Shown one piece after another: positions 712 through 42,376 of a stretch of DNA of 43,311 bases; position 1 is the stretch's first letter; every line of letters begins with the position of its first letter. Under the pieces are notes generated by a model. It searched no databases, was not told where the DNA came from, and saw nothing but the letters and a program-made list of their open reading frames with translations. The stretch is from a virus. Made by a program: the position numbers and the translations under genes. The stretch covers positions 1 to 43,311 of the IMG/VR virus record IMGVR_UViG_3300020579_000022; one strand, 5' to 3'.

Positions 712-2673
712 GTGTTTGATCTCTTTGACTTTACTCCGGTCGAGGACGATCCATTTCGGAGGCAGGCTTCGCCTGCCTCTCCAGTTGTGAATGAGTATCA
801 AAAGAGTCAGCCAGATCCGAATACAGATAAATTAGCTGCAGCCTCATCCATACCGACGGATGCGGCAATTCAGCCGGATACGATGGTTGGGAAGCTGGGG
901 TCGAATGTTGTTAGAATGTTGGCGAAGACGTTTGCGGGAAGTGATGCTGAGGATTGGGCGCAGTATGCTGCTAATCCGCTGCATCCGATGCCTGCCAGGA
1001 TTGGGTCAGCGGTGGGAGAGGAGGCAAGAAGATTTGGGGCTGGAGTGATTGGAGATGTAAATAAGCTAATGGGACCAGTCTATGGAGAGGGGCATTATCC
1101 TGTGTTTTCGGATACTGGTGCGCAAGCACCAGCATCCGAATATGCAGGGGCAGGACTTAATTTGGCGAGCATAATGGGTGGACCGGGAGGTGAGACTGGA
1201 GTTGGGGCGGGGTGGAACCCGAAGGCGGTCAAGTATTTGGATAGTCTGATAAAGAGTAAGCCGCCACTGAAGCCGGAGACTGCAGCTGTTGTGCAGCAGA
1301 TGATTAATAAGGGACCGGAGTGGACAGCTGAGTTTAATAAGGCAAGTCCTCCTGGGACGCCGGGAGTTGGTATTTCTACACTGGCGACTTCTATGCATAA
1401 GATGGAGGAGGCTAAAAAAGAGGTGCCGCAGGCATTTGTACCTGGGCCGAAGCCTGTGAAGCCACAGACTACTCCGTGGAGTCCTGAGGCGGTGAAATTT
1501 TTGAAAGAGAAGGGCTATGCTCCTGGATCTTTTTCTCCAGAAAATGCTGCATCTTTGGCTGGAGTTCAAAATCCTACTCCGAATATAGAGGTGTGGAAAC
1601 AAGCGTTGAATTTGCATGATGCAGAAATTGCTAAGACAGGGGTTACGCCTAGTGTGCCGAAGTTTACAGATAAGCTGACGGATGTTTTGAAGACACCTGC
1701 TGCAGCTAGTTTAGATCCAGCGGTAGTGACGAAGATGAAAGCGCTGGGTCCAGATGCATCTTGGTATGATTGGGTTATGTCAAATCAATCGCCAGGGACT
1801 GCGGCTGCTGCTGGATGGACACCTAAGACAGCAGCTCCAGGAATTTCTGTGGCTCCTGCTCCGAAACCTTTGAAGAAACCGTCTGTTAAGACGGTTTCTT
1901 CTGTGCCGGTGACGCCGGAGGAGGCGTTGTTTGGTGGTGGAAGCGCTACGCAGACCCAGTTGAATGATTTATTTGGACAGCAGATTCCAGCGTTGACTGT
2001 TCCGACTATGAAGCCATATGATCCTAATGTGCCGTTTCCGTCTAATTTGGCTCATGAGACTGCACCGGGGACAAGTGGTGTACAGCAGCCATTTAATCCG
2101 GGGAATTTGCCGATGGATAATGCCTCGGTGATGAAGAGGATGCAGGAGCAGGGATTTGCACCGATTGATAAGAATTGGCTGTTCTGGAGAGGTGTGAAAC
2201 AGCATGGGCCATTCTCTTGGGACTCGGCTGAGATGGGTTATAGAGATCCAAGCACGAAGACTAATGAACCGGGACTGTTTTTAGCCCCGGCTGAGACACA
2301 GGGTAAGGAGGGGAAGAAGATTGCTACTATGTATGGGACGAATGTTAATCCGCATGTAGTGAGGGCTGATAACCCAATTGTTATAGATTGGAAGAAGGAA
2401 GCTGGTGGAACTAGTTATGGTCCGACAGCTATGCAGAAAGTGATTAAGAAGATGTGGGCTCAGGGTCATGATGCAGTGTTGTTAAAGGGAATTAGTGATA
2501 TTGGTGGGCATCAGGATCAGCTGGTTGTGAGACATGCTAATCAGGTTAGACATCCACACGCAGCATTTGATCCAGCTAGGAAAAGTTCGAGAAATCTGTT
2601 GGCAGCCAGAGGTACCGGAGGAGTGACGCCACTGGTTGTTCCGGATGAAGGAGGAGAGAACGATGAACAGTAG
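712..2673 (+). CDS. Large virion-region protein with C-terminal ADP-ribosyltransferase-like (ART) domain
   Basis: 653 aa, GTG start directly after the upstream TAA, with Shine-Dalgarno AAGGAGG at 695-701. Residues 1-480 are Pro/Ala-rich and repetitive, without a clear fold. Residues about 490-630 resemble the ART-like domains carried by phage polyvalent proteins: a WRGVKQHG start, a GLFLAP segment, a YG...VVRADNPIVIDW strand pair, QGHDAVLLKG, and an ending of the type HAAFDPARKSSRNLLA. In that family the fold transfers ADP-ribose to host proteins. Whether this copy is catalytic cannot be told, because the R-S-E catalytic triad is not obvious by eye. Its place before scaffold and coat suggests a protein packaged or injected with the virion. 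Confident about the ORF, moderate about the domain. Hairpins at 759-779 and 1872-1901 are in the coding region. Confidence 0.7.
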   Translation: MFDLFDFTPVEDDPFRRQASPASPVVNEYQKSQPDPNTDKLAAASSIPTDAAIQPDTMVGKLGSNVVRMLAKTFAGSDAEDWAQYAANPLHPMPARIGSAVGEEARRFGAGVIGDVNKLMGPVYGEGHYPVFSDTGAQAPASEYAGAGLNLASIMGGPGGETGVGAGWNPKAVKYLDSLIKSKPPLKPETAAVVQQMINKGPEWTAEFNKASPPGTPGVGISTLATSMHKMEEAKKEVPQAFVPGPKPVKPQTTPWSPEAVKFLKEKGYAPGSFSPENAASLAGVQNPTPNIEVWKQALNLHDAEIAKTGVTPSVPKFTDKLTDVLKTPAAASLDPAVVTKMKALGPDASWYDWVMSNQSPGTAAAAGWTPKTAAPGISVAPAPKPLKKPSVKTVSSVPVTPEEALFGGGSATQTQLNDLFGQQIPALTVPTMKPYDPNVPFPSNLAHETAPGTSGVQQPFNPGNLPMDNASVMKRMQEQGFAPIDKNWLFWRGVKQHGPFSWDSAEMGYRDPSTKTNEPGLFLAPAETQGKEGKKIATMYGTNVNPHVVRADNPIVIDWKKEAGGTSYGPTAMQKVIKKMWAQGHDAVLLKGISDIGGHQDQLVVRHANQVRHPHAAFDPARKSSRNLLAARGTGGVTPLVVPDEGGENDEQ

Positions 2674-3067
2674 AGATGAAGCTGCGAAGGCGGTTTATGG
2701 TAAGTTAGCAAGGAAGCGCAATCGAAGGCTGAAGCATGTGCATCCGATGATAGCGGATGCGGCGGTGGGGATTATTATGGAGAGTTATGATGCGCTGATG
2801 CATCATAATGAGCACTGGGCTTCCTTTAAGAGGCAGTTTCCGGATGCGACGGCTAAGGAGTTGGAGCAGATTTATCTGGAACATAATTGGGGAAAGGGTG
2901 TCGAGGCAGCGAGGACTGTGCTGGCCCGGATGCTTGATCCGGCTGCTGCACCGGGGATTGATGAGGCGTCGAGAGAGAAGATTCATGAGGCACTGATTTT
3001 GGATAGATCGCTGCAGATGGGGAGACATGAAGATGCTTGGGAAGCAGCAGGGATACGCCGAAATTGA
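2663..3067 (+). CDS. Small conserved head-region protein
   Basis: 134 aa. The ATG at 2663 is chosen because the purine-rich AAGGAGGAGAG at 2648-2658 is well placed before it. An upstream TTG at 2636 in the same frame lacks such a site. It overlaps the end of the preceding gene by 11 nt, so translation is probably coupled. The protein is basic at the N-terminus (KLARKRNRRLKHVHP) and helical throughout, with Trp and Asp/Glu-rich segments towards the end. No family recognised. Its position just before the scaffold suggests a head-assembly role, which is inference. Confidence 0.75.
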   Translation: MNSRDEAAKAVYGKLARKRNRRLKHVHPMIADAAVGIIMESYDALMHHNEHWASFKRQFPDATAKELEQIYLEHNWGKGVEAARTVLARMLDPAAAPGIDEASREKIHEALILDRSLQMGRHEDAWEAAGIRRN

Positions 3068-3069
3068 GA

Positions 3070-3092
3070 CTTTCGGCTCGAAGAGCCGAAAG
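3070..3092 (+). repeat. Intergenic hairpin before scaffold gene
   Basis: Perfect 10-bp inverted repeat (CTTTCGGCTC / GAGCCGAAAG) with loop GAA, directly after the stop of the 134-aa gene. The Shine-Dalgarno AAGGAG of the scaffold gene follows it outside the stem. Confidence 0.85.
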
Positions 3093-3111
3093 GCTCATAA
3101 GGAGAAACTGA

Positions 3112-3897
3112 ATGGCTGATGAGAATGATAAGGTTGTAGTTACCGCCTCGGATGATGCCGGTACTCCCCCTGGCTCTCAGACGGCGGAGGAGACTCGGAC
3201 GGCGAAGCCGGACGAGTCTCCAGGGGGGAAGGAAGAGGGGGCACCTCCTTCTCCCACTCCTTCCCCCCACACTCCTTCCGGGATCTGGCCGAAGAGTGCA
3301 GTGGATCGAGTTGCCAAGCTGACGGCGAGGCTTAGGGACTATGAGGCGAGAGCAACCGCAGGACAACAGACGGTTGATCCAGCAACTGGACAGGCGTTCA
3401 CGCCTGCCCAGATTGATCAGATGATTAATGAGAGAGCTAGTCTGGTTGCAAATCAGACGGCTTTCAATACGAGGTGCAATGAGGCTGCGAATAGGGGTGC
3501 AAGTAAGTATCCGGATTGGCAAGTGAGGCTGAGTGGGTTGACTCAGCTGGTGGATCAGACGGATGCGAGAAGTCTGCAGCAGTATAATCTGTTTTTGGAG
3601 GCTGCCCTGGAGACAGGTGATGCCGAGGCGATTATTCATAAGCTGGGGTCGGATCTGAATGCGGCTTCGAGGATACTGGGGATGAGTCCGATGAAAATGG
3701 CAATGGAAGTGGGAAAGTTGGCCTCTGAAGGAGGCCAATCTTCCCCAAGCAAGGCTCCTAAGCCGATCAGGCCGCTCGGGTCAACGAGTCCAGTGACGGG
3801 GACGAAGCCGGATGATCCGGAAAGGGGAGCTGAGATGAAGATTGATGACTGGATGAATGCGCGGAATAAACAGGCGGCGGAAAGGCGTATACGTTAG
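3112..3897 (+). CDS. Scaffolding protein
   Basis: 261 aa, ATG after AAGGAGAAACTGA. The composition is that of a phage scaffold: an acidic, Pro/Ser/Gly-rich disordered N-terminus (residues 1-60), a charged helical core (about 65-200) and a Pro/Gly linker leading to a short basic helix at the extreme C-terminus (NKQAAERRIR). In P22 the basic C-terminal helices of scaffold bind the coat and direct procapsid assembly. It lies immediately before the coat gene, the canonical place. No internal protease domain is seen, so scaffold recycling as in P22 is plausible. Assignment rests on composition and context rather than a specific motif. Confidence 0.75.
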   Translation: MADENDKVVVTASDDAGTPPGSQTAEETRTAKPDESPGGKEEGAPPSPTPSPHTPSGIWPKSAVDRVAKLTARLRDYEARATAGQQTVDPATGQAFTPAQIDQMINERASLVANQTAFNTRCNEAANRGASKYPDWQVRLSGLTQLVDQTDARSLQQYNLFLEAALETGDAEAIIHKLGSDLNAASRILGMSPMKMAMEVGKLASEGGQSSPSKAPKPIRPLGSTSPVTGTKPDDPERGAEMKIDDWMNARNKQAAERRIR

Positions 3898-4038
3898 TTT
3901 CTGGACGAATGTCCTGTCGGAGATGCTAAGGCTCCTGCCTCTTAGCCAGTTTCTGGGAACTGTAACTCCCTGAGGGAAGGTTTGCAAAGCAAGCTTTCCA
4001 GAGTCTACCAGTGGTCGCTCTGCCACAAGACTGTTTCT

Positions 4039-4063
4039 CAGACTTCGCCGCAGGCGAAGTCTG
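4039..4063 (+). repeat. Hairpin upstream of coat gene
   Basis: Perfect 11-bp stem (CAGACTTCGCC / GGCGAAGTCTG), loop GCA. It lies in the 182-nt gap between scaffold and coat, with GGTGGAG and the coat ATG just downstream. The rest of the gap holds no ORF or clear promoter that I can see. Confidence 0.85.
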
Positions 4064-4079
4064 CGGTGGAGACTGACTG

Positions 4080-5303
4080 ATGGCTAATACACTGCTCACT
4101 ATTAATCTGATCACCCGAGAGGCGGTCAGACTCTGGAAGAATAGCAATGCGTTTCTGCAAAATGTGGATATGCAATATGATGACTCCTTTGCGGTGGCGG
4201 GGGCTAAGATTGGCAATACGCTGAGGATCAGGTTGCCGAATGATTATATTGTTACCACGGGTCCGGCACTGTCAGTGCAGGATACTGCGGAACAGAATAC
4301 TACGCTCACAATGGCGACGCAGAAGCATGTGGATATTGCGTTCACCACCCAGGAGCGTACCCTCAGCTTGGATGACTTTTCGCGGAGGATTTTAGCTCCG
4401 GCGGTGAATAATCTGGCTGGGTCTGTAGCCTCGGACATCATGTCTGGAGCTGAGGGTGGTATCTGCAACTTTGTGGCTAATCAGGATGCCAGTCAGAATA
4501 TCCTGAGCCCCATTGCAGCAACTTATCTGTTGGCGGGCGCTAACCTGGATAATAACTCGGGACCGATTGAGAACCGGAAGGTTGTCAATAATCCGGTGAC
4601 TGAGGCCAGGATGGTTGCCACGCTGGCTGGCCTGCTTAACCCGGCACCGGAGATTGGCCGGCAGTATGTGACCGGGCGTATGTATGATGCGCTCGGTTTC
4701 ATCTGGATGAAGGACCAGACCGTCATCACCCATACGAGTGGGAGCATGGCGCAGGGTTCGCTGACTATTAATGGGGCCAATCAAACTGGGCTGCAGATTG
4801 CGGTGACGGCGGCTGCGAGCACGCTGGCGGTGGGCGATATTGTGACCATTGCTGGTGTATTCAAGGTCAATAGGATCACCAAGCAGACCACTGGGCAGTT
4901 GGAGCAGTTTGTGGTCACGCAGCCGCTTGCGGTTGGTGGGACTTCGCTGTTCCTGTATCCGGCTGTTGTACCGCCTGCTGGTGGGTTGCCCGTCCAGTAT
5001 CAGACGGTGACTGCGAGCCCGGCTAATGGGGCTGCGGTTAACCCGACGAATGGACTGGCTGCATCCTCGGTTTACCGGAAGAACTTCGTGTTCGCTCCGG
5101 AAGCAGTGACGCTGGCTACGGCTGATCTGGAGACTCCAGAGGGTGTTCATGCGGTTGCGCGTGAGCAGTTTGACGGGGTTTCCATGAGGATGATCACGGA
5201 TTACTTTATCGGGACTGATCAGCTGATTACTCGGTTGGATGTGCTGTATGGGTATCTGTGGATCAGGCCGGAATGGGCCGTGGTTGTGGCGGATGTCATA
5301 TAA
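4080..5303 (+). CDS. Major capsid (coat) protein, P22 gp5 type
   Basis: 407 aa, close to the 430 aa of P22 coat. It forms the capsid shell. Family features visible: an N-terminal helix region with RLPNDYIVTTGP, a long helix with LSLDDFSRRILAPAVNNLA, and a beta-rich inserted domain around residues 215-300 (VGDIVTIAGVFKVN). That segment corresponds to the region of P22 coat reading LKRGDKISFAGV. A closing segment reads MRMITDYFIGTDQLITRLD and matches the end of P22-type coats. The codon use is richer in C at third positions than in neighbouring genes, as expected for a highly expressed gene. The scaffold lies upstream. Confidence 0.88.
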   Translation: MANTLLTINLITREAVRLWKNSNAFLQNVDMQYDDSFAVAGAKIGNTLRIRLPNDYIVTTGPALSVQDTAEQNTTLTMATQKHVDIAFTTQERTLSLDDFSRRILAPAVNNLAGSVASDIMSGAEGGICNFVANQDASQNILSPIAATYLLAGANLDNNSGPIENRKVVNNPVTEARMVATLAGLLNPAPEIGRQYVTGRMYDALGFIWMKDQTVITHTSGSMAQGSLTINGANQTGLQIAVTAAASTLAVGDIVTIAGVFKVNRITKQTTGQLEQFVVTQPLAVGGTSLFLYPAVVPPAGGLPVQYQTVTASPANGAAVNPTNGLAASSVYRKNFVFAPEAVTLATADLETPEGVHAVAREQFDGVSMRMITDYFIGTDQLITRLDVLYGYLWIRPEWAVVVADVI

Positions 5304-8509: not shown

Positions 8510-9445
8510 GTGACTTTCTCGACTGGAAAGTATCCTAGCTTCAATACTAGTCTTGGCCGGCTTATGCCTACCGGCCAAGACCTTCAGCAGCTGGCTGCGG
8601 ATATTAGTGCGGGGTTTTCTACTTTTCCGGATGCTCCGAATAACGGGAATTATTATGTAAGGCAGAGTGCGGCTTGGGTTGTGCTGCCTACGACGGCCTC
8701 GGTTTCGAGTGTGGCTGGGAAGACGGGAGTTGTAACGCTTAACCATAATGATATTTCAGACTGGAATACAGCAACTGCTTCGTTCTTGACTGGTAATCAG
8801 CCAATTACGCTGACAGGAGATGTGGTAGGGACAGGGTCGACGACTGTGTCGACGACCCTGGCCAATGTGAATGCAAATGTTGGGACATTCCAGGGTATTA
8901 GTGTTAATGCTAAGGGGCTGGTGACTGGGGCAGCTAATATGAATTACGCCCCGCTCAACTCGCCGGTGCTGACGGGGACGCCGACTGCGCCGACACCGGC
9001 GTTGGCAGATAATTCGAATAATATTGCGACGACTGCTTTTGTGCTAGCGAATGCGATAACAGGAAGTATAACTTATGCTCAGTTGCCAGCTGAGGTGCAG
9101 AAGGTTCCGATTAGTTTTGCGTTTCCGGGCGTACCAGCGAATGGGGCGATGGTTAATGCTCCGTCAGCGATGGCTTTGACCATACCGGCTGCGTTGGCTG
9201 GAACGGTCGTTTATGATGCTACGCTGGCAACGGCGAGTGCCGTGTTTACGTTGAACAAAATTTCTGGTGGAACTACTACTGCGTTGGGGACTGTGACAAT
9301 TACAAATGGGTCGCATACATCTGCTACGCTTGCAGGTGCAGGTGGGAGTTTGGCTATTGGGGATGTGCTGTCACTCGTCGCTCCGTCGACGAGTGACAGC
9401 ACATTGGCTGATATAGGGATTACTATTTTGGCGATGAGAGTATGA
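8510..9445 (+). CDS. Tail-fibre-like protein with shared N-terminal anchor
   Basis: 311 aa, GTG start after GAGGAGCAAGCAA. Residues 6-30 (GKYPSFNTSLGRLMPTGQDL, then QQLAA) are nearly the same as the N-terminus of the collagen-like fibre gene at 10498, so this is probably the virion-attachment module. The middle has standard fibre spacers (VAGKTGVVTLNHNDISDW, DVVGTGSTTVSTTLANVN, NSNNIATTAFVLANAI). The C-terminal 110 residues are an Ala/Thr/Val beta domain, plausibly receptor binding or trimerising. A 16-bp perfect hairpin (9365-9402) lies inside the coding sequence near the end. Confidence 0.75.
   Translation: MTFSTGKYPSFNTSLGRLMPTGQDLQQLAADISAGFSTFPDAPNNGNYYVRQSAAWVVLPTTASVSSVAGKTGVVTLNHNDISDWNTATASFLTGNQPITLTGDVVGTGSTTVSTTLANVNANVGTFQGISVNAKGLVTGAANMNYAPLNSPVLTGTPTAPTPALADNSNNIATTAFVLANAITGSITYAQLPAEVQKVPISFAFPGVPANGAMVNAPSAMALTIPAALAGTVVYDATLATASAVFTLNKISGGTTTALGTVTITNGSHTSATLAGAGGSLAIGDVLSLVAPSTSDSTLADIGITILAMRV
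9365..9402 (+). repeat. 16-bp perfect hairpin inside fibre gene
   Basis: Arms GTGCTGTCACTCGTCG and CGACGAGTGACAGCAC, loop CTCCGT, 40 bases before the stop codon of the fibre gene. Both arms are translated. Confidence 0.9.
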
Positions 9446-20707: not shown

Positions 20708-20958
20708 GACATGCGCTGTCAAGGAGGCAGCGTGAATGCCTGCTGTGGATTGCGCGCGGGAAGACATATGATGAGATAGCAGCCATCGAAAAGCTCTCAT
20801 TCGGCTCGATCAAAAGTTATTTGGACTCCGCTAGATATAAGTTGAACGCAGTTAATTTGCCACAGGCTGTGGCTATTGCAGTGGCTACAGGTGTTCTCCG
20901 GTATGATGAGCTGCAATTGGAGAATAGATCTACAGGAAGGGATATTATGATTGTTTAG
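20704..20958 (+). CDS. Solo LuxR-type HTH protein
   Basis: 84 aa; ATG overlaps the stop of the ejection gene (ATGA 20704-20707). Residues 4-62 are a LuxR/GerE-type HTH: LSRRQRECLLWIARGKTYDEIA, then SFGSIKSYLDSARYKLNAVNLPQAVAIAVATGVL. The canonical order of the T/SxRExECLxxxxxGKxxxEIAxxLxxSxxTVKxHxxxxxxKLxxxNRxQAVxxA pattern is kept. There is no sensor or receiver domain, so it resembles the HTH tails of quorum-sensing regulators. As the last gene of the late operon it may regulate late genes or host quorum-controlled genes. It overlaps the convergent replication gene by 14 bp. Confidence 0.8.
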   Translation: MRHALSRRQRECLLWIARGKTYDEIAAIEKLSFGSIKSYLDSARYKLNAVNLPQAVAIAVATGVLRYDELQLENRSTGRDIMIV

Positions 20959-22132
20959 GTGACTTGCCTGTTACACGCCAAGTGCCGTCCTCCCTTCGGA
21001 CGAAGGTGCCGATAGCCTCCATAGATAAGAGGATTGACTTAATCTTTTGGGCAGGTACTTTCCTGACAAGCCAAGTTATTAGAGTGTTGTCTGTTATTGG
21101 TTTGCCGTCGGTCTGTGATTTTAGGGCAAACGCATAGAGCCCCAGCATATGATCGAAGTCTGAGTTCTGCTCCTTCATATTCTCAAAGACTTCTGGCATC
21201 ACCGTCTCAGCTTCGAGGAGCCAATTGATGGCACGCTCGACGTGAGACACATTAATAGTCATACCGGGGCTTTCACTCATTGAAGCTACCATTGAAAGTT
21301 TGAGTGCATGAAGGGTGCGGGTCTCATTATAGTAGAGGAGGTGGTGATGAGTCGGACGTGGATATGCTCCGTCCTCATTATCCCATTCTTGGAGAAGGGA
21401 TATGGCCTCCTCATTAAATTGCATTTCTCCGTGGATTGTACTGATCTCATGAAGCCGTTTGCATATTGCGTTTTTAAGCTGTTCGTCGAGGGGTGGCGCG
21501 CTAAAGAGAGTTTGTTTCTCCGCGTTGCGGTTCCAGATTAGGATTGTGCGGCGAAGAAAGCCCTGGTCAGCACCCTCCTTTAGGAGCACTTTGTTCATGA
21601 CGTCTGGCTGATAGCCGAGAAGAGCTGTCATGAGGGGGGCTTTGATTTTCGTTTTGCCGTGCCCTCGGCGCTCCTCTTCATAGTCATCCGGAGCGTTATA
21701 AATTTTGGTGAGAAATGAGAGGAGGGAGGGATCGTAGGTCGAGAAGAAGTCAGAAAACTCCTCCACCGGGAGAAGGAGGCAGTTGTATTGGTAGGAGGGG
21801 ATGCCGTTCTGGGTGGCTTTCGAAAGAGCATCTACGAGAGCTGCTTTGGTTGCGTTGTCTACGCCCACATAGAAGTCAGGAATTTGTAGTTCGTTTAAAG
21901 TGGCTCTCCAGAGACGACGCACGCTATCAATTACGCTCTTGCCGCTACCTGGAGGGCCGGCGAGCATAATGTATAGGTTCGGATAGTTGACGTAAGCGTC
22001 GTTCTTCGTAAAGACTCGACGCTCCATTGCGCCCGCTACTAAAGTGATCCCTGCCCACTTCCTATATAAAGGACTGGTACGAAAGCCCTTCGTGTACAGT
22101 GTAAACTGATCGACCAGATCTCCCGATGGCAC
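20945..22132 (-). CDS. DUF3987-like replicative helicase/ATPase
   Basis: 395 aa, GTG start with GGGAGG upstream. Walker A GPPGSGKS at residues 59-66 after a hydrophobic strand (YIMLAG). A Walker B-type strand LLLPVEEFSDFF lies near 125, and a later segment DQGFLRRTILIW near 200 includes a plausible arginine finger. The layout matches DUF3987 proteins, DnaB/RecA-fold ATPases that serve as helicases next to phage polymerases. It lies directly downstream of the polymerase, 15 nt away. It lacks a primase domain. The C-terminus reads like a winged-helix tail (ITWLVRKVPAQKIKSILLSMEAIGTF). Confidence 0.7.
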   Translation of the reverse strand: MPSGDLVDQFTLYTKGFRTSPLYRKWAGITLVAGAMERRVFTKNDAYVNYPNLYIMLAGPPGSGKSVIDSVRRLWRATLNELQIPDFYVGVDNATKAALVDALSKATQNGIPSYQYNCLLLPVEEFSDFFSTYDPSLLSFLTKIYNAPDDYEEERRGHGKTKIKAPLMTALLGYQPDVMNKVLLKEGADQGFLRRTILIWNRNAEKQTLFSAPPLDEQLKNAICKRLHEISTIHGEMQFNEEAISLLQEWDNEDGAYPRPTHHHLLYYNETRTLHALKLSMVASMSESPGMTINVSHVERAINWLLEAETVMPEVFENMKEQNSDFDHMLGLYAFALKSQTDGKPITDNTLITWLVRKVPAQKIKSILLSMEAIGTFVRREDGTWRVTGKSPKQS

Positions 22133-22147
22133 GACAACTCACCCTCC

Positions 22148-23680
22148 CTACAGTCGTTCTAAGCCTGACGGCCTAGAACGCCTGTCATGCGTTCCCCTCC
22201 TCCACTTGAGTAATCCAGCCGGGTTGTTTCCCGACTCCGGTGCCCAGTTCCACCCGACCTTGGCGGCTCCAGGCGCGATATAAGCTCTTTGACTCTTCGA
22301 GTCAAAGAGCTTAATTTCATTCAACAGTTCTAAGACTGCTGTGATAAGTTCGTCCGCATCTTTATCATCTTCACGGAATTGAAAGGTGATGGAGTCGTGT
22401 GTCTGAGCTAATAGCTGAATGCGATCTCCGAGTCTAGCCCATGCCAACCAGAGCCAGAGATTTGTGCGTTCAGCCGTCATATTCTGGGGAACGAATGCAA
22501 TTGCCTCCCTTAGTGTGGCATCACTCCTATGATCTCCAAAGAAGTGACGCTGCCTTCCGAATGGTGTCGTAATGGAGCCGACCGTCTGAAGCCGGTCGGC
22601 TATCCAGTTCCAGTATTGGCGAAGAGCTGGATAAGCTGGGCGAATGTTGTTCTTGGCGTCTCCTCTACAATAGCGCGCCTGAAACTCCACACAGACTTTC
22701 ATGGGGAGCTTTAAGACACGGCTCATTGTCCATGCTGTTCCGTTGTAGTTGGTGAGGTGGCCTCCTCGCTTGGCCAAGTCACGCATTGTCCAATCGCGGT
22801 AGACGGGTATGCGTTCAGCCAGCTGGCGGCAACCAGCGGGATCGGCTGGCCAAGGCTGATCTGGCCATATAAGTCTGCAGTTGTTGGTGTGGAAGTCTCC
22901 CGACTCGCAAGAATCCAACAGAGACCAGTCCCCAAACAAACACCCGCAGAGAAACCCAACATCACGAGCCTCCACCTGCTCAAGGTCAATCGAGCAGAGT
23001 TTCCAACCTGGATCTGATATGAAGACTCGGCGGAGTTCTGGAGCAATATTTTGAGCGTTTCCGCCTGTGCCGAGGACTGAAGTTGAAGATGAAAGACGGC
23101 CTGTTTCAGTTCCGCCGATATTGTACGAAGTTCTATGTCGTCCATCTTCGTCTATCTCCTCAGTGAGGACATCCAACTGCTTATAGAGATCGCGGCATGA
23201 AAGGATGAGGGAGACAATTGGTCGAGCATACATATACTCGTCTATCTTCTCTAGGGCCTCCCGATTGACTGACAGTCTACGCTCTCCCTTAAAGGAAAGC
23301 CAGATCTCGGGGATCTTCATTGTCTTATAGAAGAAGTCTGATAACTGGGTGTGGGATCGGGGGTTAAGTTCTTTACCCCATACATGCTGAGCTAATATGT
23401 TCAGCACCTGTCGCGAAGCAGCAACTTGCTGCTTCACTGCAAGCTCCATTCGGTACCGATCCAGTCCATCAATGAGGAAGCCGTGAAGAGCCATCTCCAG
23501 GAGGGGAGCTTGAAGCGCCCTCTCAAAGGAGTAGATTGGCTCCGCACCGCCCGGATGTTCCTTGTTGATGTTCTCCAGGATCTCTAGTGTGAGCATGGAG
23601 TCGAGCGCACAATAGGTCTGATGCTGCTCTTCAATATTCAGCCTGCCAGGTTCTATTGTAGCTGTCTGGATGACTGGCAT
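22148..23680 (-). CDS. DNA polymerase, family A (polymerase half of a split enzyme)
   Basis: 510 aa; ATG at 23680 after TGAGGCTGAG. Polymerase motifs in order: TGRLSS at 193-198; motif A CSIDLEQVEARD (D232); motif B RDLAKRGGHLTNYNG (R300, K304, H308, Y312); motif C QTHDSI (H428, D429). His occupies the O-helix position of E. coli Pol I Phe762, as in some phage polymerases with an HGTNYG-type motif. The N-terminus contains YCALDSMLTLEIL (Y23, D27), which is the ExoIII motif of a 3'-5' exonuclease. ExoI and ExoII are missing here and are found in the UDG-exonuclease gene at 24165. The enzyme therefore looks split inside the exonuclease domain. Replicates the phage genome. Confidence 0.88.
   Translation of the reverse strand: MPVIQTATIEPGRLNIEEQHQTYCALDSMLTLEILENINKEHPGGAEPIYSFERALQAPLLEMALHGFLIDGLDRYRMELAVKQQVAASRQVLNILAQHVWGKELNPRSHTQLSDFFYKTMKIPEIWLSFKGERRLSVNREALEKIDEYMYARPIVSLILSCRDLYKQLDVLTEEIDEDGRHRTSYNIGGTETGRLSSSTSVLGTGGNAQNIAPELRRVFISDPGWKLCSIDLEQVEARDVGFLCGCLFGDWSLLDSCESGDFHTNNCRLIWPDQPWPADPAGCRQLAERIPVYRDWTMRDLAKRGGHLTNYNGTAWTMSRVLKLPMKVCVEFQARYCRGDAKNNIRPAYPALRQYWNWIADRLQTVGSITTPFGRQRHFFGDHRSDATLREAIAFVPQNMTAERTNLWLWLAWARLGDRIQLLAQTHDSITFQFREDDKDADELITAVLELLNEIKLFDSKSQRAYIAPGAAKVGWNWAPESGNNPAGLLKWRRGTHDRRSRPSGLERL
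22155..22180 (-). repeat. Hairpin at end of polymerase gene
   Basis: 11-bp stem with one mismatch (CGTTCTAAGCC / GGCCTAGAACG on the + strand), loop TGAC, over the last codons of the polymerase gene. Confidence 0.6.
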
Positions 23681-23686
23681 CTCAGC

Positions 23687-23742
23687 CTCAAAAAACTAAA
23701 GTTTTTTGAGTCTGAATAAGCTTTAGCTTATTCAGACTCAAA
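23687..23742 (-). repeat. Two overlapping hairpins between DUF1937 and polymerase genes
   Basis: 10-bp stem CTCAAAAAAC / GTTTTTTGAG with loop TAAA (23687-23710). It partly shares bases with a 17-bp perfect stem (23705-23721 / 23726-23742), loop TTTA. The two cannot form fully at the same time, so they are alternative structures. On the coding strand the TGA stop of the DUF1937 gene is at the base of the longer stem. Confidence 0.85.
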
Positions 23743-24172
23743 GTAATCTTGTCCAGTTCAAGGTCACTTCATCTCCTTGGTATGTGGGAGGCGGATCTAG
23801 CGCCCACACTGGACAACCAATCATTTTGCTATAATCCAGTTCTTTCCGCACTCCTTTTGATTGAGCCCAATTGGGAAAACAAAGGAGGATTACTCCTCTG
23901 GAGCGGAATATCATGTGGCGGTTATGTTCATTCCAAAACTCCGCATCTGTTGGCATGTTATATGTTTGTGCCATGTCATGATAGTGAATGATGGGGGCAT
24001 ATACAGTTAGTTTACGTTTTGTTAAAAGAGCTGCTAAAGCTAAATGCTCTTTGTAGCGCTCCATTATGTTGTCGGAATAGGGACCGGCCATGTACCAGTA
24101 GCCTTCCCCAGGTGCGGGATGTTGAGTCGAATCTTGTAAAGCAAGATTCGACTCAAGAGGATGGTCACTCAT
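23738..24172 (-). CDS. DUF1937 / nucleoside 2-deoxyribosyltransferase-like protein
   Basis: 144 aa, start overlapping the UDG-exonuclease stop, with GGGAGAAAAACTAG upstream. Residues 27-33 YMAGPYS, then VYAPIIHYHDMAQTYNMPTDAEFW, an NEHNRHMIFRSRGVILL segment and SKGVRKELDYSKMIGCPVWAL. These match DUF1937, a Rossmann-like group related to nucleoside deoxyribosyltransferases. A role in nucleotide metabolism is likely but unproven. The conserved part starts at residue 25. The first 24 residues are encoded across a 15-bp hairpin and look like an added extension. The gene separates the two halves of the polymerase and is flanked by hairpins on both sides. Confidence 0.7.
   Translation of the reverse strand: MSDHPLESNLALQDSTQHPAPGEGYWYMAGPYSDNIMERYKEHLALAALLTKRKLTVYAPIIHYHDMAQTYNMPTDAEFWNEHNRHMIFRSRGVILLCFPNWAQSKGVRKELDYSKMIGCPVWALDPPPTYQGDEVTLNWTRLL
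24122..24156 (-). repeat. 15-bp perfect hairpin at 5' end of DUF1937 gene
   Basis: TTGAGTCGAATCTTG / CAAGATTCGACTCAA with loop TAAAG on the + strand. Translated as residues about 6-17 of the DUF1937 protein. Confidence 0.9.
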
Positions 24173-25331
24173 CTAGTTTTTCTCCCTTCACTTTGGTTGC
24201 ACGATGCCGACCCATCAGCTTCCAGCTAGCTTCGTTGGTGTAGATGGAGCCTAGGAAACCGAGACTCTTCTGAACTTCTGGGTAAAGCGAATGGTGTAGC
24301 AGCATGGTGTCCTCACGAGCACAATGCAGTTTGAAACCCATTCTAATAAAATACTGCATGTCATACATACCATTCTGGAAAACAAGTGGGCGTCCACACT
24401 CCAAGAGGATCTGGACACATGCCCAGGCTTGAAGCTCTTCTTCAACCGTACCCCAGTAGTTGTGCGTACCAGCCTTGTTACGGAACGGAATGGTAATGGA
24501 AAACTGAGAATTGTGGGCGAAGCTGATGCAGGTGATTAGCGGACCTGCTGTCTCACAGTCTACGGCTAGAGGAGATGACCAAGAAATGATACCCCTAGTA
24601 AAATTTATAACTTCTTCCAGAGTTGGGTTAATGATGGCTTTACGCTCGGGCCGGATCACTCGGGGATGGGATGTTTCGCGCCAGGCTTTAATGAAGTCGG
24701 CCATGCAGATGATACGCCACTCACGGCGTCCACGTCCAGGCAGGACTGCGGATGGATGGTAAGTGGGGAGGATTTTTACTCCCGGAGCAACCCCTCCTGA
24801 CGAGCCCACTGTCGCAGTGCCACGGACATTGCTAATGTCAGTTCTTCCAAGGAGGGCCCAGGTCGCGATAGCTCCAGCCGCAATGATACACGTTGGTCTG
24901 GTTTGCTCGAGTTCGGCTCGGAGACGGTCAAGCTCACCCAAATACTCCGTTTTGAGATAGGCAAGTTTGCCACGTCCGAGCGGGGGAAGTTGAGGATAGT
25001 CATTGGGAAGCTCCTTCTTGGAGCATAGGAGGAAGTCGAAGTCATTGTTTGGTGGACGGAGTGCGGCCACATTGGTCAGACCAATTCCGGCCTCCTTGGC
25101 CCATACATTTCGCATCTGATGCCAGCCGGAGCGTCCAAGAGCGAACCGGAAGTCAGCCGTGTATTTGTTGGCTGGAATGGTTTCTAGAAGAATGCGAGAT
25201 AGTTCGGCTCCGGCTATTCCGCAGAAGGGAATACCGCCTGTCTGTTCTTCGGACTCGCCCCATGCCTCGCCGATAATGACTAGGCGCGGTTCACGGGAGC
25301 CAGCCCACCCGGCAAAAGGGGGACATGTCAT
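24165..25331 (-). CDS. Uracil-DNA glycosylase fused to 3'-5' exonuclease (N-terminal half of split polymerase)
   Basis: 388 aa; ATG at 25331 overlaps the upstream stop (ATGA). Residues 1-215 are a family-4/5-like uracil-DNA glycosylase: LVIIGEAWGESEEQTGGIPF (18-37), then GAELSRILLE, and LPTYHPSAVL (188-197) with the HPS motif. Residues 250-388 are a DnaQ-fold exonuclease: ExoI AVDCE (D258, E260) and ExoII VFQNGMYDMQYF (D324), then EDTMLLHHSLYPEVQKSLGF. ExoIII is absent and found in the polymerase gene. Related phages often carry UDG, exonuclease and polymerase as one chain. Likely removes uracil and proofreads in a complex with the polymerase. No separate [4Fe-4S] cysteine set is evident. Confidence 0.8.
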   Translation of the reverse strand: MTCPPFAGWAGSREPRLVIIGEAWGESEEQTGGIPFCGIAGAELSRILLETIPANKYTADFRFALGRSGWHQMRNVWAKEAGIGLTNVAALRPPNNDFDFLLCSKKELPNDYPQLPPLGRGKLAYLKTEYLGELDRLRAELEQTRPTCIIAAGAIATWALLGRTDISNVRGTATVGSSGGVAPGVKILPTYHPSAVLPGRGRREWRIICMADFIKAWRETSHPRVIRPERKAIINPTLEEVINFTRGIISWSSPLAVDCETAGPLITCISFAHNSQFSITIPFRNKAGTHNYWGTVEEELQAWACVQILLECGRPLVFQNGMYDMQYFIRMGFKLHCAREDTMLLHHSLYPEVQKSLGFLGSIYTNEASWKLMGRHRATKVKGEKLDE

Positions 25332-26746
25332 GAGTCAGCACCGTGCTTTGCACGATGCTGACTCAGGTCATGGGCTTCTGCATTTACGCGGAAGCTGAGA
25401 AGGGCTTCGCGTCCAACGGACACAAAGCGCTCCTCAATTTCCAGACCAAGGACATTCTGAGACAGAGCCCCAAGACTTTCAGCAGCTCTGAGGGAGGAGG
25501 CGGCTCCGCAGGTAGGGTCCAAGAAACGGGTGTTTCCATCAACCAAGGCTGCAAAGAAGTGGCGAAGCATAGGCTCCGGCTTACAGGATGGATGCAGCTT
25601 TCGGTCACCTGGACCTGAATAAGAGTCAGCAACTGTCCGGACGAGGGGACGGCGGCCTCGATAGGCTAGAAGGGCTGCCTCGTAGGTGTGACGAGGCCAC
25701 CGTTGGGAGTCGCCAACGATACCTGAATTGTCCGATTTGTGCCAAATAAGTGGATATGGATAGAACTCAATAGATGGGCCGTTTGCCTCAAAGAGGCGCA
25801 TAGTCCTAGCCATGACAGCTGGCTTAGGACTGAGCCAGAACATTATGTGGCCAAGAGGTGATAGCAGATGATCGAGGTTCTTTATCAAGCACTCGGTGAG
25901 GGTCCAGTAGTCGACTGCTTGATCGGAGTAAGCGCCCTCTTGGTCTTCTGGTTTGAACTGGCCTGCGCCGTCGAAGACATTCGCCCCATACGGAAAGTCA
26001 CAGTGGATTAGGTTGAAGGACATGCCAGTGTAATTTGGTGCCCATTCGAGGAAATTTTCCTGCCTGATGGCACGCTCTACCGCAGCACGGGACCATGATG
26101 CCTCAACAGCAATCTCAGGTTCAGGCAAAGCCTGAACCTGAGTTTGCGGAGTCACTACGTTTTGTAATAGGGAGGACGGCTTGCCCGTCTCCCCTATTAC
26201 CATCCCTCTAGCGAAGATGGCCATATCGTTTATCTCCGTCTCGTCCTCGCGCTCTTTGCGCCTCCTGATGAGGTTGCGGGCCTCGTTGACTGAAGTGGCC
26301 TTGGCCACTCTCGGATCTTTCAGGTGAGTGGCGACGAGGAGGGTGTTGGAGACGTGACCTGCGTCAATAGAGAGGGCCTCGGCAGTCATTCTTTGGTTCC
26401 ATGCAGGATCTTTCTTCCCATATAGGAAGTGAAGCTCGGCTATGGCTCTGGTGGAGTCTTGCCATGTGAGGTCTTTGCGCTTGATATTCTCTTCAAGCTC
26501 AACCACTTTAAGTTCGTCTATGTTCAGGTCTTCAAACCATCGAACTGCGATAATTTGCATGTTTAGTGCTTTGCAGGCCTCCCATCTGCGCTCACCGGCT
26601 ATCAGCTGGTAGTCTTTGGTGATAATGATGGGGTTGATGAGGCCCACCCTCTTTATACTCTGCTGGAGTGCGGGGTCCGGCTCTAGCTTCCGTCTCTGAC
26701 GGGAGTCTCGTTTAACCCAGATGAGGGAGAGGGCAATGTCTGGCAT
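25328..26746 (-). CDS. ParB-like domain fused to DNA methyltransferase
   Basis: 472 aa, ATG after AAAGGA. Residues 1-165 are a ParB/Srx-type domain: GLINPIIITKDYQLIAGERR, then VVELEENIKRKDLTW, and a helical region with TAEALSIDAGHVSNTL. Residues 215-450 are an amino-methyltransferase of beta-type order: catalytic motif IV CDFPYG (D250) precedes the SAM motif I FLDPTCGAASS (408-418). HPSCKPEPML stands in between. Motif IV is DFPY instead of the usual DPPY, compatible with N4/N6-adenine or cytosine-N4 methylation. The linker (residues 180-212) is encoded by two hairpins. The product may modify phage DNA at sites guided by the ParB part. Confidence 0.8.
   Translation of the reverse strand: MPDIALSLIWVKRDSRQRRKLEPDPALQQSIKRVGLINPIIITKDYQLIAGERRWEACKALNMQIIAVRWFEDLNIDELKVVELEENIKRKDLTWQDSTRAIAELHFLYGKKDPAWNQRMTAEALSIDAGHVSNTLLVATHLKDPRVAKATSVNEARNLIRRRKEREDETEINDMAIFARGMVIGETGKPSSLLQNVVTPQTQVQALPEPEIAVEASWSRAAVERAIRQENFLEWAPNYTGMSFNLIHCDFPYGANVFDGAGQFKPEDQEGAYSDQAVDYWTLTECLIKNLDHLLSPLGHIMFWLSPKPAVMARTMRLFEANGPSIEFYPYPLIWHKSDNSGIVGDSQRWPRHTYEAALLAYRGRRPLVRTVADSYSGPGDRKLHPSCKPEPMLRHFFAALVDGNTRFLDPTCGAASSLRAAESLGALSQNVLGLEIEERFVSVGREALLSFRVNAEAHDLSQHRAKHGADS
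25331..25365 (-). repeat. Hairpin at methylase/UDG gene boundary
   Basis: 16-bp stem with one mismatch (TGAGTCAGCACCGTGC / GCACGATGCTGACTCA), loop TTT. It covers the last codons of the ParB-methyltransferase gene, right up to the ATGA overlap. Confidence 0.85.
26114..26199 (-). repeat. Two hairpins in the ParB-methylase linker
   Basis: 13-bp perfect stem CTCAGGTTCAGGC / GCCTGAACCTGAG, loop AAA (26114-26142), and an imperfect stem of about 16 bp over 26165-26199. Both are translated and fall exactly in the linker between the two domains. Confidence 0.8.
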
Positions 26747-26754
26747 CGAAGTCC

Positions 26755-26806
26755 GATCCTTTCAATAAGCAGTCGAGCTTTGCTCGACTGCTTATTGAAG
26801 AGGATC
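26755..26806 (-). repeat. Long hairpin before ParB-methylase gene
   Basis: 18-bp perfect stem (26761-26778 / 26782-26799), loop TTT, extended by GATCCT / AGGATC beyond a one-base bulge. The AAGGA ribosome site of the ParB-methylase gene is in the outer part of the coding-strand 3' arm. This is among the longest hairpins in the window. Confidence 0.9.
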
Positions 26807-33164: not shown

Positions 33165-33199
33165 CAGAGCTTAAGCGAGCAAAGCTCGCTTAAGCTCTG
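33165..33199 (-). repeat. 16-bp perfect hairpin, loop AAA
   Basis: CAGAGCTTAAGCGAGC / GCTCGCTTAAGCTCTG. The TAA stop of the 94-aa gene is within the coding-strand 5' arm. Confidence 0.92.
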
Positions 33200-41151: not shown

Positions 41152-41184
41152 TGATCAATTGACGGCTTGTCCGTCAATTGATCA
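41152..41184 (-). repeat. 14-bp perfect hairpin, loop CTTGT
   Basis: TGATCAATTGACGG / CCGTCAATTGATCA. The TGA stop of the AAA+ gene is in the coding-strand 5' arm. Confidence 0.92.
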
Positions 41185-42376
41185 GGTTCCGTTTGTCCGC
41201 TGGAATGTTGGCCAAGTATGTGAGTTCGGCGGCTTGGTCTGGGGTGAAGCCGGACTGGATTAGGGCTGAGCCGGCGATGCTGTGGCGCGGGTCAATTATG
41301 ACTTTGAGGCCTGCTTTCTTGGCGGCTGCTCGGGCAGCTTGGACTCGCTTGGTCCATGCGGGGTTTCCGCCGATGGCGAGTTCGAAGGGTTCGTCGTAGG
41401 GCCATGAGATTTTGACGGGGAAGCGGGAGAGGAATGCTGCGTCTATTTTGACGCGGCCTACGTAGTCGGCTGTTGCGCCGAGACCCCAGGTGTTGGCGGT
41501 TGCGAGGATGATGCTGTCTGGGTGGCGGGGCATGAGGCGGTCGGCGAAATCGCATTCGCCGTTGGCTAGGGCTGCGTTGAGGGCGAGGAGGGCGCTGTTC
41601 TCGCTTGAGTCCACGTCGTCGAATTGGTAGACGGCGGGGACTGTGTAGCCTTCGCGGAATGGGGTGGTGTGGTAGTTGCCGGTGGCGTCGCGGAAGCCGA
41701 TTAGCTTGTGCTCCATGGAGACGGCACCGTTGAAGAAGAATGGAAGGTTTAGGGCGGATGCGAGTTGGCGGCCGCCTGTGGTTTTGCCTGAGCCGGCTGG
41801 ACCGGCTATCCAGCAATTGGGGTGATAGCCGTCTGCTTGGCGAGATGAAGCGGCTCGGAGGAGGGTGAGGAATTGCGGGTGTTTGTGGCCGTCAGGGACT
41901 GTGAATGAGCCTTCCGGGGTGTTGACTGTGATATTGACTTCGCGGGTCTGTTCGAGAAGTTTCAGGGCCTCATCCATTGAGGATGAGAGGGAGTCGATTT
42001 TTTCTTCGAGGGATGAAATGGCATTTGCATGTGCGAGACGCTCGGATGAGAGCGTCGAAGCTATTTCGGATTTGAGCTTGGCGAGGCCTGTTAGGGCCAC
42101 GACGTGGTTGCTGCCGATTTGGGAGATTGCGGCGTCGAGGCGCCCTTTGAGCTTTAGGAGGTCGGCAGTTTGGGGGTCACTATTGGATGGTCCACCTTCA
42201 TTAGATGACGAGCTTGTCTCGTCATCCAATCCAAGGAGTTCTTCGGCTGATTTGCTGGAATAGGCCTGGGGTTTTGGGCTGGGCTCTTGGCCGGTGCCGT
42301 TGCAGCGATAGCAGGTGTAACCGGAGTTGTGTTTGCCGGTGCCTTTGCAGCGGAGGCAGGGTTTGAGGGTGGCCAT
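41174..42376 (-). CDS. MoxR/CobS-type AAA+ ATPase with DnaJ-type zinc finger
   Basis: 400 aa. Residues 7-29 hold two CxxCxGxG-like repeats (CLRCKGTG and CYRCNGTG), as in the zinc finger of DnaJ. A Ser/Asp-rich linker and a coiled coil (75-145) follow. The AAA+ core has Walker A GPAGSGKT (192-199), Walker B VYQFDDVDS (249-257), sensor 1 LATANT (N295) and an arginine finger FLSRF (R318). This is the MoxR/CobS group, which works with a VWA partner, here the next gene downstream. The zinc finger may bind unfolded protein or nucleic acid. Together they could remodel a host or phage protein complex early in infection. Confidence 0.78.
   Translation of the reverse strand: MATLKPCLRCKGTGKHNSGYTCYRCNGTGQEPSPKPQAYSSKSAEELLGLDDETSSSSNEGGPSNSDPQTADLLKLKGRLDAAISQIGSNHVVALTGLAKLKSEIASTLSSERLAHANAISSLEEKIDSLSSSMDEALKLLEQTREVNITVNTPEGSFTVPDGHKHPQFLTLLRAASSRQADGYHPNCWIAGPAGSGKTTGGRQLASALNLPFFFNGAVSMEHKLIGFRDATGNYHTTPFREGYTVPAVYQFDDVDSSENSALLALNAALANGECDFADRLMPRHPDSIILATANTWGLGATADYVGRVKIDAAFLSRFPVKISWPYDEPFELAIGGNPAWTKRVQAARAAAKKAGLKVIIDPRHSIAGSALIQSGFTPDQAAELTYLANIPADKRNLIN
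42204..42226 (-). repeat. 9-bp hairpin, loop CTTGT, in AAA+ gene
   Basis: GATGACGAG / CTCGTCATC, translated in the Asp/Ser-rich linker behind the zinc finger. Confidence 0.75.

What the first reader, a model, noticed from the sequence alone, without database searches (positions are those of the whole stretch)
22148..25331. Family A polymerase split inside its exonuclease domain by a DUF1937 gene
The 24165-25331 protein has UDG plus ExoI (D258, E260) and ExoII (D324) and stops. The ExoIII motif (Y23xxxD27) opens the polymerase protein at 22148-23680. Between them is a complete DUF1937 gene flanked by hairpins of 15 and 17 bp. Known relatives carry UDG-exonuclease-polymerase as one chain. The break falls in the loop between ExoII and ExoIII. 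The two products must assemble to proofread, or proofreading is lost.
Basis: partly seen in the sequence, partly recalled or inferred. Interest (0 to 1): 0.64.

Follow-up and report, generated by a model that had tools for sequence, protein, structure and literature searches.

The report
Virus DNA polymerase split through its proofreader
This virus makes its DNA-copying enzyme as two proteins cut through the middle of the proofreading domain, and about a hundred related viral lineages share the same cut with all proofreading residues kept, which suggests an old, stable two-part enzyme rather than a gene recently broken by an insertion.

Summary
The split is real. Chain 1 (24165-25331, minus strand) is UDG plus the exonuclease core with ExoI and ExoII. 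Chain 2 (22148-23680) starts with ExoIII and continues through the family A polymerase. Neither chain holds a complete exonuclease. The PDB matches of the two chains tile the Klenow fragment without overlap.

The inserted-gene reading fails. The same break occurs in about 97 non-redundant viral lineages, including the cultivated Caulobacter phage Kuura, where it appears unreported. Between the halves lie zero to several unrelated genes (gap -1 to 3314 nt). DUF1937-like genes occur in 16 of these genomes, and four lineages have nothing there. The hairpins around DUF1937 are younger insertions, absent from two close relatives that carry the same gene in the same place.

The exonuclease catalytic residues, spread over both chains, are conserved in essentially every lineage. 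Chain 1 ends in a K-R/K-D-E-like tail, and chain 2 gains a head of about 20 residues that fused relatives lack. I infer an obligate two-chain polymerase whose proofreading site forms only on assembly. Assembly is not shown experimentally. Split phage polymerases are known elsewhere (T4-like gp43A/B, MEP401). I found no report of this one, cut inside the proofreading active site.

The parts
24165..25331 (-). Chain 1: UDG plus exonuclease core (388 aa), with ExoI D258/E260 and ExoII N320/D324
   Evidence: Pfam UDG 1.1e-13; catalytic residues conserved in 97 of 97 split lineages with that region; AlphaFold2 pLDDT 91.5
24657..25331 (-). UDG domain (about aa 1-225)
   Evidence: Family 4 UDG fold, Z 18.4 to 1ui0/1vk2/6l6s
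24210..24638 (-). 3'-5' exonuclease core without its last helix (about aa 232-374)
   Evidence: Matches Klenow chain positions 15-125 by profile; model 232-350 aligns to apPol 57-168, Z 12.4
24168..24209 (-). Chain 1 C-terminal tail (aa 375-388, ends KLDE; K382 nearly invariant), disordered when modelled alone
   Evidence: Tail ends KRDE/KKDE/KKDD in 59 of 97 lineages and in an acidic residue in 90 of 97; pLDDT under 50
23738..24172 (-). Intervening gene, DUF1937 (nucleoside 2-deoxyribosyltransferase-like); its ATG overlaps the stop of chain 1 by 8 nt
   Evidence: Pfam DUF1937 6.6e-7, PHROG 355; cargo changes between lineages
22148..23680 (-). Chain 2: ExoIII helix plus complete polymerase domain (510 aa)
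   Evidence: Pfam DNA_pol_A 1.8e-25; model 1-491 aligns to Klenow 468-928, Z 31.2; pLDDT 93.5
23615..23680 (-). Chain 2 head (aa 1-22, MPVIQTATIEPG...), an extension absent from single-chain relatives
   Evidence: T6 nearly invariant; median 22 residues before the ExoIII Tyr, against 17 residues for the whole WK-to-Tyr linker in fused relatives
23600..23614 (-). ExoIII motif Y23xxxD27
   Evidence: Y and D in 98 of 98 split lineages
22208..23548 (-). Polymerase thumb, palm and fingers (aa 45-491; D232, R300, K304, Y312, D429)
   Evidence: D232, R300, K304 invariant in 98 split lineages; D429 in 94, gap in 4
24122..24156 (.). 15-bp hairpin inside the 5' end of the DUF1937 ORF; part of a 42-nt in-frame insertion specific to the window
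   Evidence: Absent from L010 and L012
23682..23742 (.). Two overlapping hairpins between DUF1937 and chain 2; part of a 58-nt insertion specific to the window

Best explanation
The two proteins are the subunits of one two-chain family A DNA polymerase. An ancestral single-chain UDG-exonuclease-polymerase was fissioned in the loop between ExoII and ExoIII, and this state has been inherited by a large clade of tailed phages. Chain 1 carries the UDG and the exonuclease core with ExoI and ExoII. Chain 2 carries the last exonuclease helix (ExoIII Tyr and Asp) and the whole polymerase. Inferred: the chains dock through the exonuclease domain, helped by a conserved head on chain 2 and tail on chain 1. 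The proofreading site is complete only in the complex, so free chain 1 should be a poor nuclease. The place between the halves is a variable cargo site, often filled by nucleotide-metabolism genes; DUF1937 is this lineage's cargo and not the cause of the split.
For: The two halves tile Klenow without overlap. The same break is present in about 97 non-redundant lineages at under 90% identity. The quick tree needs one change of state (SH-aLRT 92). ExoI, ExoII, ExoIII and the polymerase residues are conserved almost without exception across both chains. Conserved tail and head motifs occur at the new ends. Gap length runs from -1 to 3314 nt with unrelated cargo, and the halves stay separate in four lineages with 3 nt or less between them; in L086 only one in-frame TAG and one codon lie before the ATG. 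Covariation between the exonuclease domain and chain 2 residues 1-45 is enriched: 14 of the top 100 inter-chain pairs, 4.1 expected (UDG with the same residues 6, 4.9 expected). The only cultivated member found among 50,697 phage records is Kuura, a plaque-forming phage, so the arrangement is viable.
Against: No physical interaction or activity has been shown, and no two-chain model could be computed. Covariation comes from 97 sequences (Meff 81) and is modest. The careful tree leaves the root region open: it prefers 2 changes, 58% of bootstrap trees have 1, and the AU test does not reject a single split clade (p 0.39). The locus sample is a 'best 80 per scan' sample, not a survey.
Confidence: 0.77

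Rival explanations
1. The halves separated and proofreading was lost: chain 2 works alone as an exonuclease-free polymerase and chain 1 is kept only for its UDG.
For: Chain 2 contains a full polymerase domain with a confident fold of its own.
Against: D258, E260 and D324 in chain 1, and Y23 and D27 in chain 2, are conserved in 97-98 of 98 lineages although the proteins diverge to about 40% identity. A lost exonuclease would not keep them, least of all the ExoIII pair on the polymerase chain.
Confidence: 0.07
2. The halves are joined after transcription or translation (trans-splicing, intron, intein or programmed recoding).
For: Introns and split genes are common in phage polymerase genes (PMC10580990, PMC2988022), and a few relatives have HNH genes in the gap.
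Against: No Rfam match anywhere in the window. No room for intein parts (11-17 residues after the last conserved WK). Each half has its own start and stop, and in L089, L176 and L151 the stop and start are 2 nt apart or overlap out of frame. The conserved end peptides look like real protein ends.
Confidence: 0.04
3. The split is recent and was made in this lineage by insertion of the DUF1937 gene.
For: A complete DUF1937 gene lies between the halves with hairpins nearby.
Against: The same break occurs with other cargo or none in about 97 lineages. The hairpins are absent from L010 and L012, which have DUF1937 in place.
Confidence: 0.03
4. The split enzyme assembles, but the separation itself is adaptive: it lets the phage vary the ratio of proofreading UDG-exonuclease subunit to polymerase, or exchange the subunit by recombination.
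For: Long persistence without observed re-fusion, including lineages without any insert; conserved new termini.
Against: A neutral ratchet explains persistence equally well; no exchange of halves was tested or seen.
Confidence: 0.2

Closest known systems
Single-chain phage UDG-exonuclease-PolA (Microcystis phage Mel-JY34, MW202489, Desulfofustis phage LS06-2018-MD01; solved: phiLo polymerase 9qhs)
   Same: Same domains in the same order, same catalytic motifs, and the same neighbours for the phages (ParB-methyltransferase upstream, DUF3987 primase-like gene downstream) (9qhs)
   Different: One chain; WK-to-ExoIII linker of about 17 residues; no head extension
Split PolB gp43A/gp43B of T4-like Aeromonas phages 25 and 44RR (PMC2988022)
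   Same: A phage replicative polymerase encoded as two chains with intervening DNA; in phage 25 the chains co-purify and are active
   Different: Family B; as described there in only a few T4-like phages; the interruption is a seg homing endonuclease gene or an untranslated spacer
Split PolA of OM43 phages MEP401/MEP402 (Zobellviridae; PMC10580990)
   Same: Family A phage polymerase in two ORFs with a small ORF between
   Different: The break is in the polymerase domain, so ORF13 keeps a whole exonuclease domain; no UDG is mentioned in the passages read
Caulobacter phage Kuura (OQ067476; PMC9959647)
   Same: Same split at the same place, with two different small genes between; chain 1 annotated 'hypothetical protein'
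   Different: Other cargo; tail KQGN; the paper does not contain the word 'split' and the passages shown do not mention it

Membership tests
Family A DNA polymerase (PolI-like) | Motifs A, B, C and Klenow-like fold in the polymerase domain | tested here: met
   D232, R300, K304, Y312, D429 conserved; Pfam 1.8e-25; Z 31 to Klenow and Bst
DnaQ-like 3'-5' proofreading exonuclease | ExoI, ExoII and ExoIII motifs in one domain | tested here: met
   All motifs present and conserved, but on two chains
DnaQ-like 3'-5' proofreading exonuclease | 3'-5' exonuclease activity | not testable with these tools
   Needs purified proteins
Family 4 / UdgX-type uracil-DNA glycosylase | UDG superfamily fold | tested here: met
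   Z 18.4, rmsd 1.7 over 157 residues to 1ui0
Family 4 / UdgX-type uracil-DNA glycosylase | Iron-sulphur cluster cysteines and activity | not tested
   Not examined
Homing-endonuclease-split phage polymerase (T4-like kind) | Mobile endonuclease at the break | tested here: not met
   DUF1937 in the window; HNH genes in only a few relatives
Intron- or intein-interrupted polymerase gene | Self-splicing element at the break | tested here: not met
   No Rfam match; no space for intein parts; gapless members
DUF1937 / nucleoside 2-deoxyribosyltransferase clan (middle gene) | Curated profile match | tested here: met
   PF09152 30.4 bits, cut-off 23; PHROG 355

The most novel reading that the evidence does not exclude
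A widespread, ancient family of viral polymerases in which proofreading is switched on only by joining of a separate UDG-exonuclease subunit, so the phage can set its fidelity through subunit dose or exchange. The break is also a long-standing docking place for nucleotide-metabolism genes.
Probability: 0.2. Interest if true: 0.78.

Novelty: new variant of a known kind. Interest (0 to 1): 0.6.

Why it matters
All family A polymerases I know of with proofreading carry the exonuclease as one domain of one chain. Here about a hundred viral lineages appear to keep its active site divided between two proteins. That gives a natural test of how a split domain is kept in evolution, and of whether proofreading can be a dissociable function. 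Kuura, a cultivated Caulobacter phage, makes it testable now. It also corrects annotation: chain 1 is listed as 'hypothetical protein' in Kuura, and a genome annotated this way looks as if its polymerase lacks proofreading.

Tried and rejected
DUF1937 as cause of the split: rejected. Hairpins as insertion borders: rejected. Intron or intein: rejected. Exonuclease loss: rejected by conservation. Splits at other sites were set aside as different: ABTNL-3 (L185), L255 and L179 break before motif A; MW202554 (L181) breaks after ExoIII; L261 is a probable frameshift. One origin with full certainty: not claimed, because the careful tree leaves the root region open. Paper searches for UDG-PolA fusions or PolA gene fission found nothing on this split. 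The genome-contig scan gave only four loci; two of them (L176 in a Terriglobia MAG, L177 in an Actinomycetes MAG) carry the same split. 9qhs was identified by title only; the paper search for phiLo found nothing relevant.

Full report
Observation. The window is a whole viral record of 43,311 bases. The replication genes run on the minus strand: a ParB-like/methyltransferase protein (25328-26746), chain 1 (24165-25331), a DUF1937 gene (23738-24172), chain 2 (22148-23680) and a DUF3987 primase/helicase-like protein (20945-22132). Chain 1 matches Pfam UDG and the middle of PHROG 17 (DNA polymerase, profile 549-798). Chain 2 matches DNA_pol_A and the adjoining part of the same PHROG (808-1231). 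Neither matches the Pfam 3'-5' exonuclease model, which all three single-chain relatives do match.

Where the break lies. In an alignment with single-chain relatives, chain 1 ends after the conserved 'GFLGSIYT..WK' stretch and chain 2 begins just before ExoIII. Profile searches of the PDB place the exonuclease part of chain 1 on Klenow chain positions 15-125, and chain 2 on 171-590. AlphaFold2 models built from 90 and 86 sequences have mean pLDDT 91.5 and 93.5. Chain 1 residues 1-228 are a family 4 UDG fold, and residues 232-350 align to the exonuclease of the apicoplast polymerase (57-168). Chain 2 residues 1-491 align to Klenow 468-928 with Z 31.2. The halves therefore tile one Klenow fold, and the last exonuclease helix, with the ExoIII Tyr and Asp, is on the polymerase chain. 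The final 14 residues of chain 1 are disordered when it is modelled alone.

How common it is. Among annotated phages the nearest relative is Caulobacter phage Kuura, with the same break and two other small genes in it; its exonuclease half is annotated 'hypothetical protein'. Three further searches of 50,697 phage records with other members of the clade showed no second isolate with this split among the best rows. Scans of IMG/VR found many more. After reading the ORFs of all fetched loci, 158 were split and 86 fused. At under 90% identity this leaves 97 lineages with this split and 61 fused. Two MAG contigs, labelled Terriglobia and Actinomycetes, also carry it. These numbers come from the best 80 loci of each scan and are not a census.

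One event or several. A quick tree of both halves needs a single change between fused and split (SH-aLRT 92), with no re-fusion among 97 lineages. A smaller tree with a mixture model leaves the root region open: it prefers two changes, 58% of bootstrap trees have one, and the AU test does not reject a single split clade (p 0.39). The shared new ends favour one fission. Of 97 lineages, 90 end chain 1 in an acidic residue, and KRDE, KKDE or KKDD account for 59. Most chain 2 proteins start with an M-x-I-I-x-T-like head. Tail plus head give about 36 residues (medians 14 and 22) between the conserved WK and the ExoIII Tyr, against a median of 17 in fused relatives.

Selection on the divided active site. 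In the split lineages ExoI Asp/Glu and ExoII Asp (chain 1) are conserved in 97 of 97 with that region present, and ExoIII Tyr/Asp (chain 2) in 98 of 98, as are polymerase D232, R300 and K304. Proteins mostly at 36-57% identity to the window would not keep these on two chains if proofreading were lost. Inter-chain covariation (97 sequences, Meff 81) is enriched between the exonuclease domain and chain 2 residues 1-45: 14 of the top 100 pairs against 4.1 expected, while the UDG shows 6 against 4.9. This is modest support for docking through the ExoIII segment.

What lies between the halves. The gap runs from -1 to 3314 nt, median 604. Cargo includes nucleoside-2-deoxyribosyltransferase-like genes, MazG and other pyrophosphatases, TSCPD proteins, one ribonucleotide reductase, a DNA ligase part, and a few HNH endonucleases. 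DUF1937-like genes occur in 16 genomes, and a second family, which by sequence resembles the DUF7768 members counted by Pfam, occurs in 21. On the tree they need at least 11 and 16 changes, against one or two for the split. In L176, L089, L151 and L086 the halves are -1, 2, 2 and 3 nt apart with nothing inserted. In L086 one in-frame TAG and one codon separate chain 1 from the ATG of chain 2. The split therefore persists without any insert.

The hairpins. They belong to a set that fills the window: 57 near-perfect hairpins against none in shuffled sequence, concentrated at gene ends. The copies in and after DUF1937 lie in 42- and 58-nt insertions that L010 and L012 lack, although both have DUF1937 in the same place. 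They are younger than the split and unrelated to it.

Mechanism. Shown: two separate genes, complementary parts of one enzyme, conserved divided active site, conserved new ends, variable cargo, viability (Kuura is a plaque-forming phage, PMC9959647). Inferred: the two chains assemble; proofreading happens only in the complex; head and tail help docking. Unknown: whether the separation has an advantage or is a neutral ratchet.

Comparison with the known. Split phage polymerases exist: gp43A/gp43B of T4-like phages 25 and 44RR, where the phage 25 chains co-purify and are active (PMC2988022), and PolA of MEP401/402, cut in the polymerase domain (PMC10580990). Papers on phage polymerase diversity that I searched for terms such as 'split' and 'uracil' do not describe this case, nor do the Kuura passages. 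The library holds open-licence papers only, so absence is weak evidence. I file it as a new variant of a known kind.

Noticed in passing
window 1-43311 (e.g. 9363-9404, 23705-23742, 26761-26799, 33165-33199): 57 near-perfect short-loop hairpins (stem 13 bp or more), 0 in shuffles; loops often TTT, TTTA or CTTG; half of those checked lie within 40 nt of a gene end, without a clear U-tract. Frequent in L010, nearly absent from L012 although its polymerase chain is 95% identical, so the gain or loss is fast. At 25329-25367 window and L010 share the outer stem but not the inner stem.
   Followed up: partly
window 24120-24160: The 42-nt hairpin insertion at the start of DUF1937 keeps the reading frame and is flanked by CATCC on both sides, like a small mobile palindrome with target duplication.
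   Followed up: partly
L185 (Vibrio phage ABTNL-3), L255, L179: A second break point in family A polymerases, just before motif A (after ...NLQNIP); in ABTNL-3 a 555-bp gene lies in it.
   Followed up: partly
L181 (MW202554) 1727-4364: UDG-exonuclease including ExoIII (419 aa) separated from the polymerase (408 aa) by 150 bp that encode a zinc-ribbon-like stretch in another frame.
   Followed up: no
L020 7970-8377 and L018: An HNH-like endonuclease ORF sits in the gap of L020 but not of its close relative L018, a pair for studying gain or loss.
   Followed up: no
chain 2 motif C in split relatives: The motif C His (H428 in the window) is Tyr in 16 and Phe in 6 of 98 split lineages, for example L015 'EVYDSVC'.
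   Followed up: no
window 41174-42376: Protein of PHROG 249 ('porphyrin biosynthesis', 7e-43) on the minus strand near the right end of the record.
   Followed up: no
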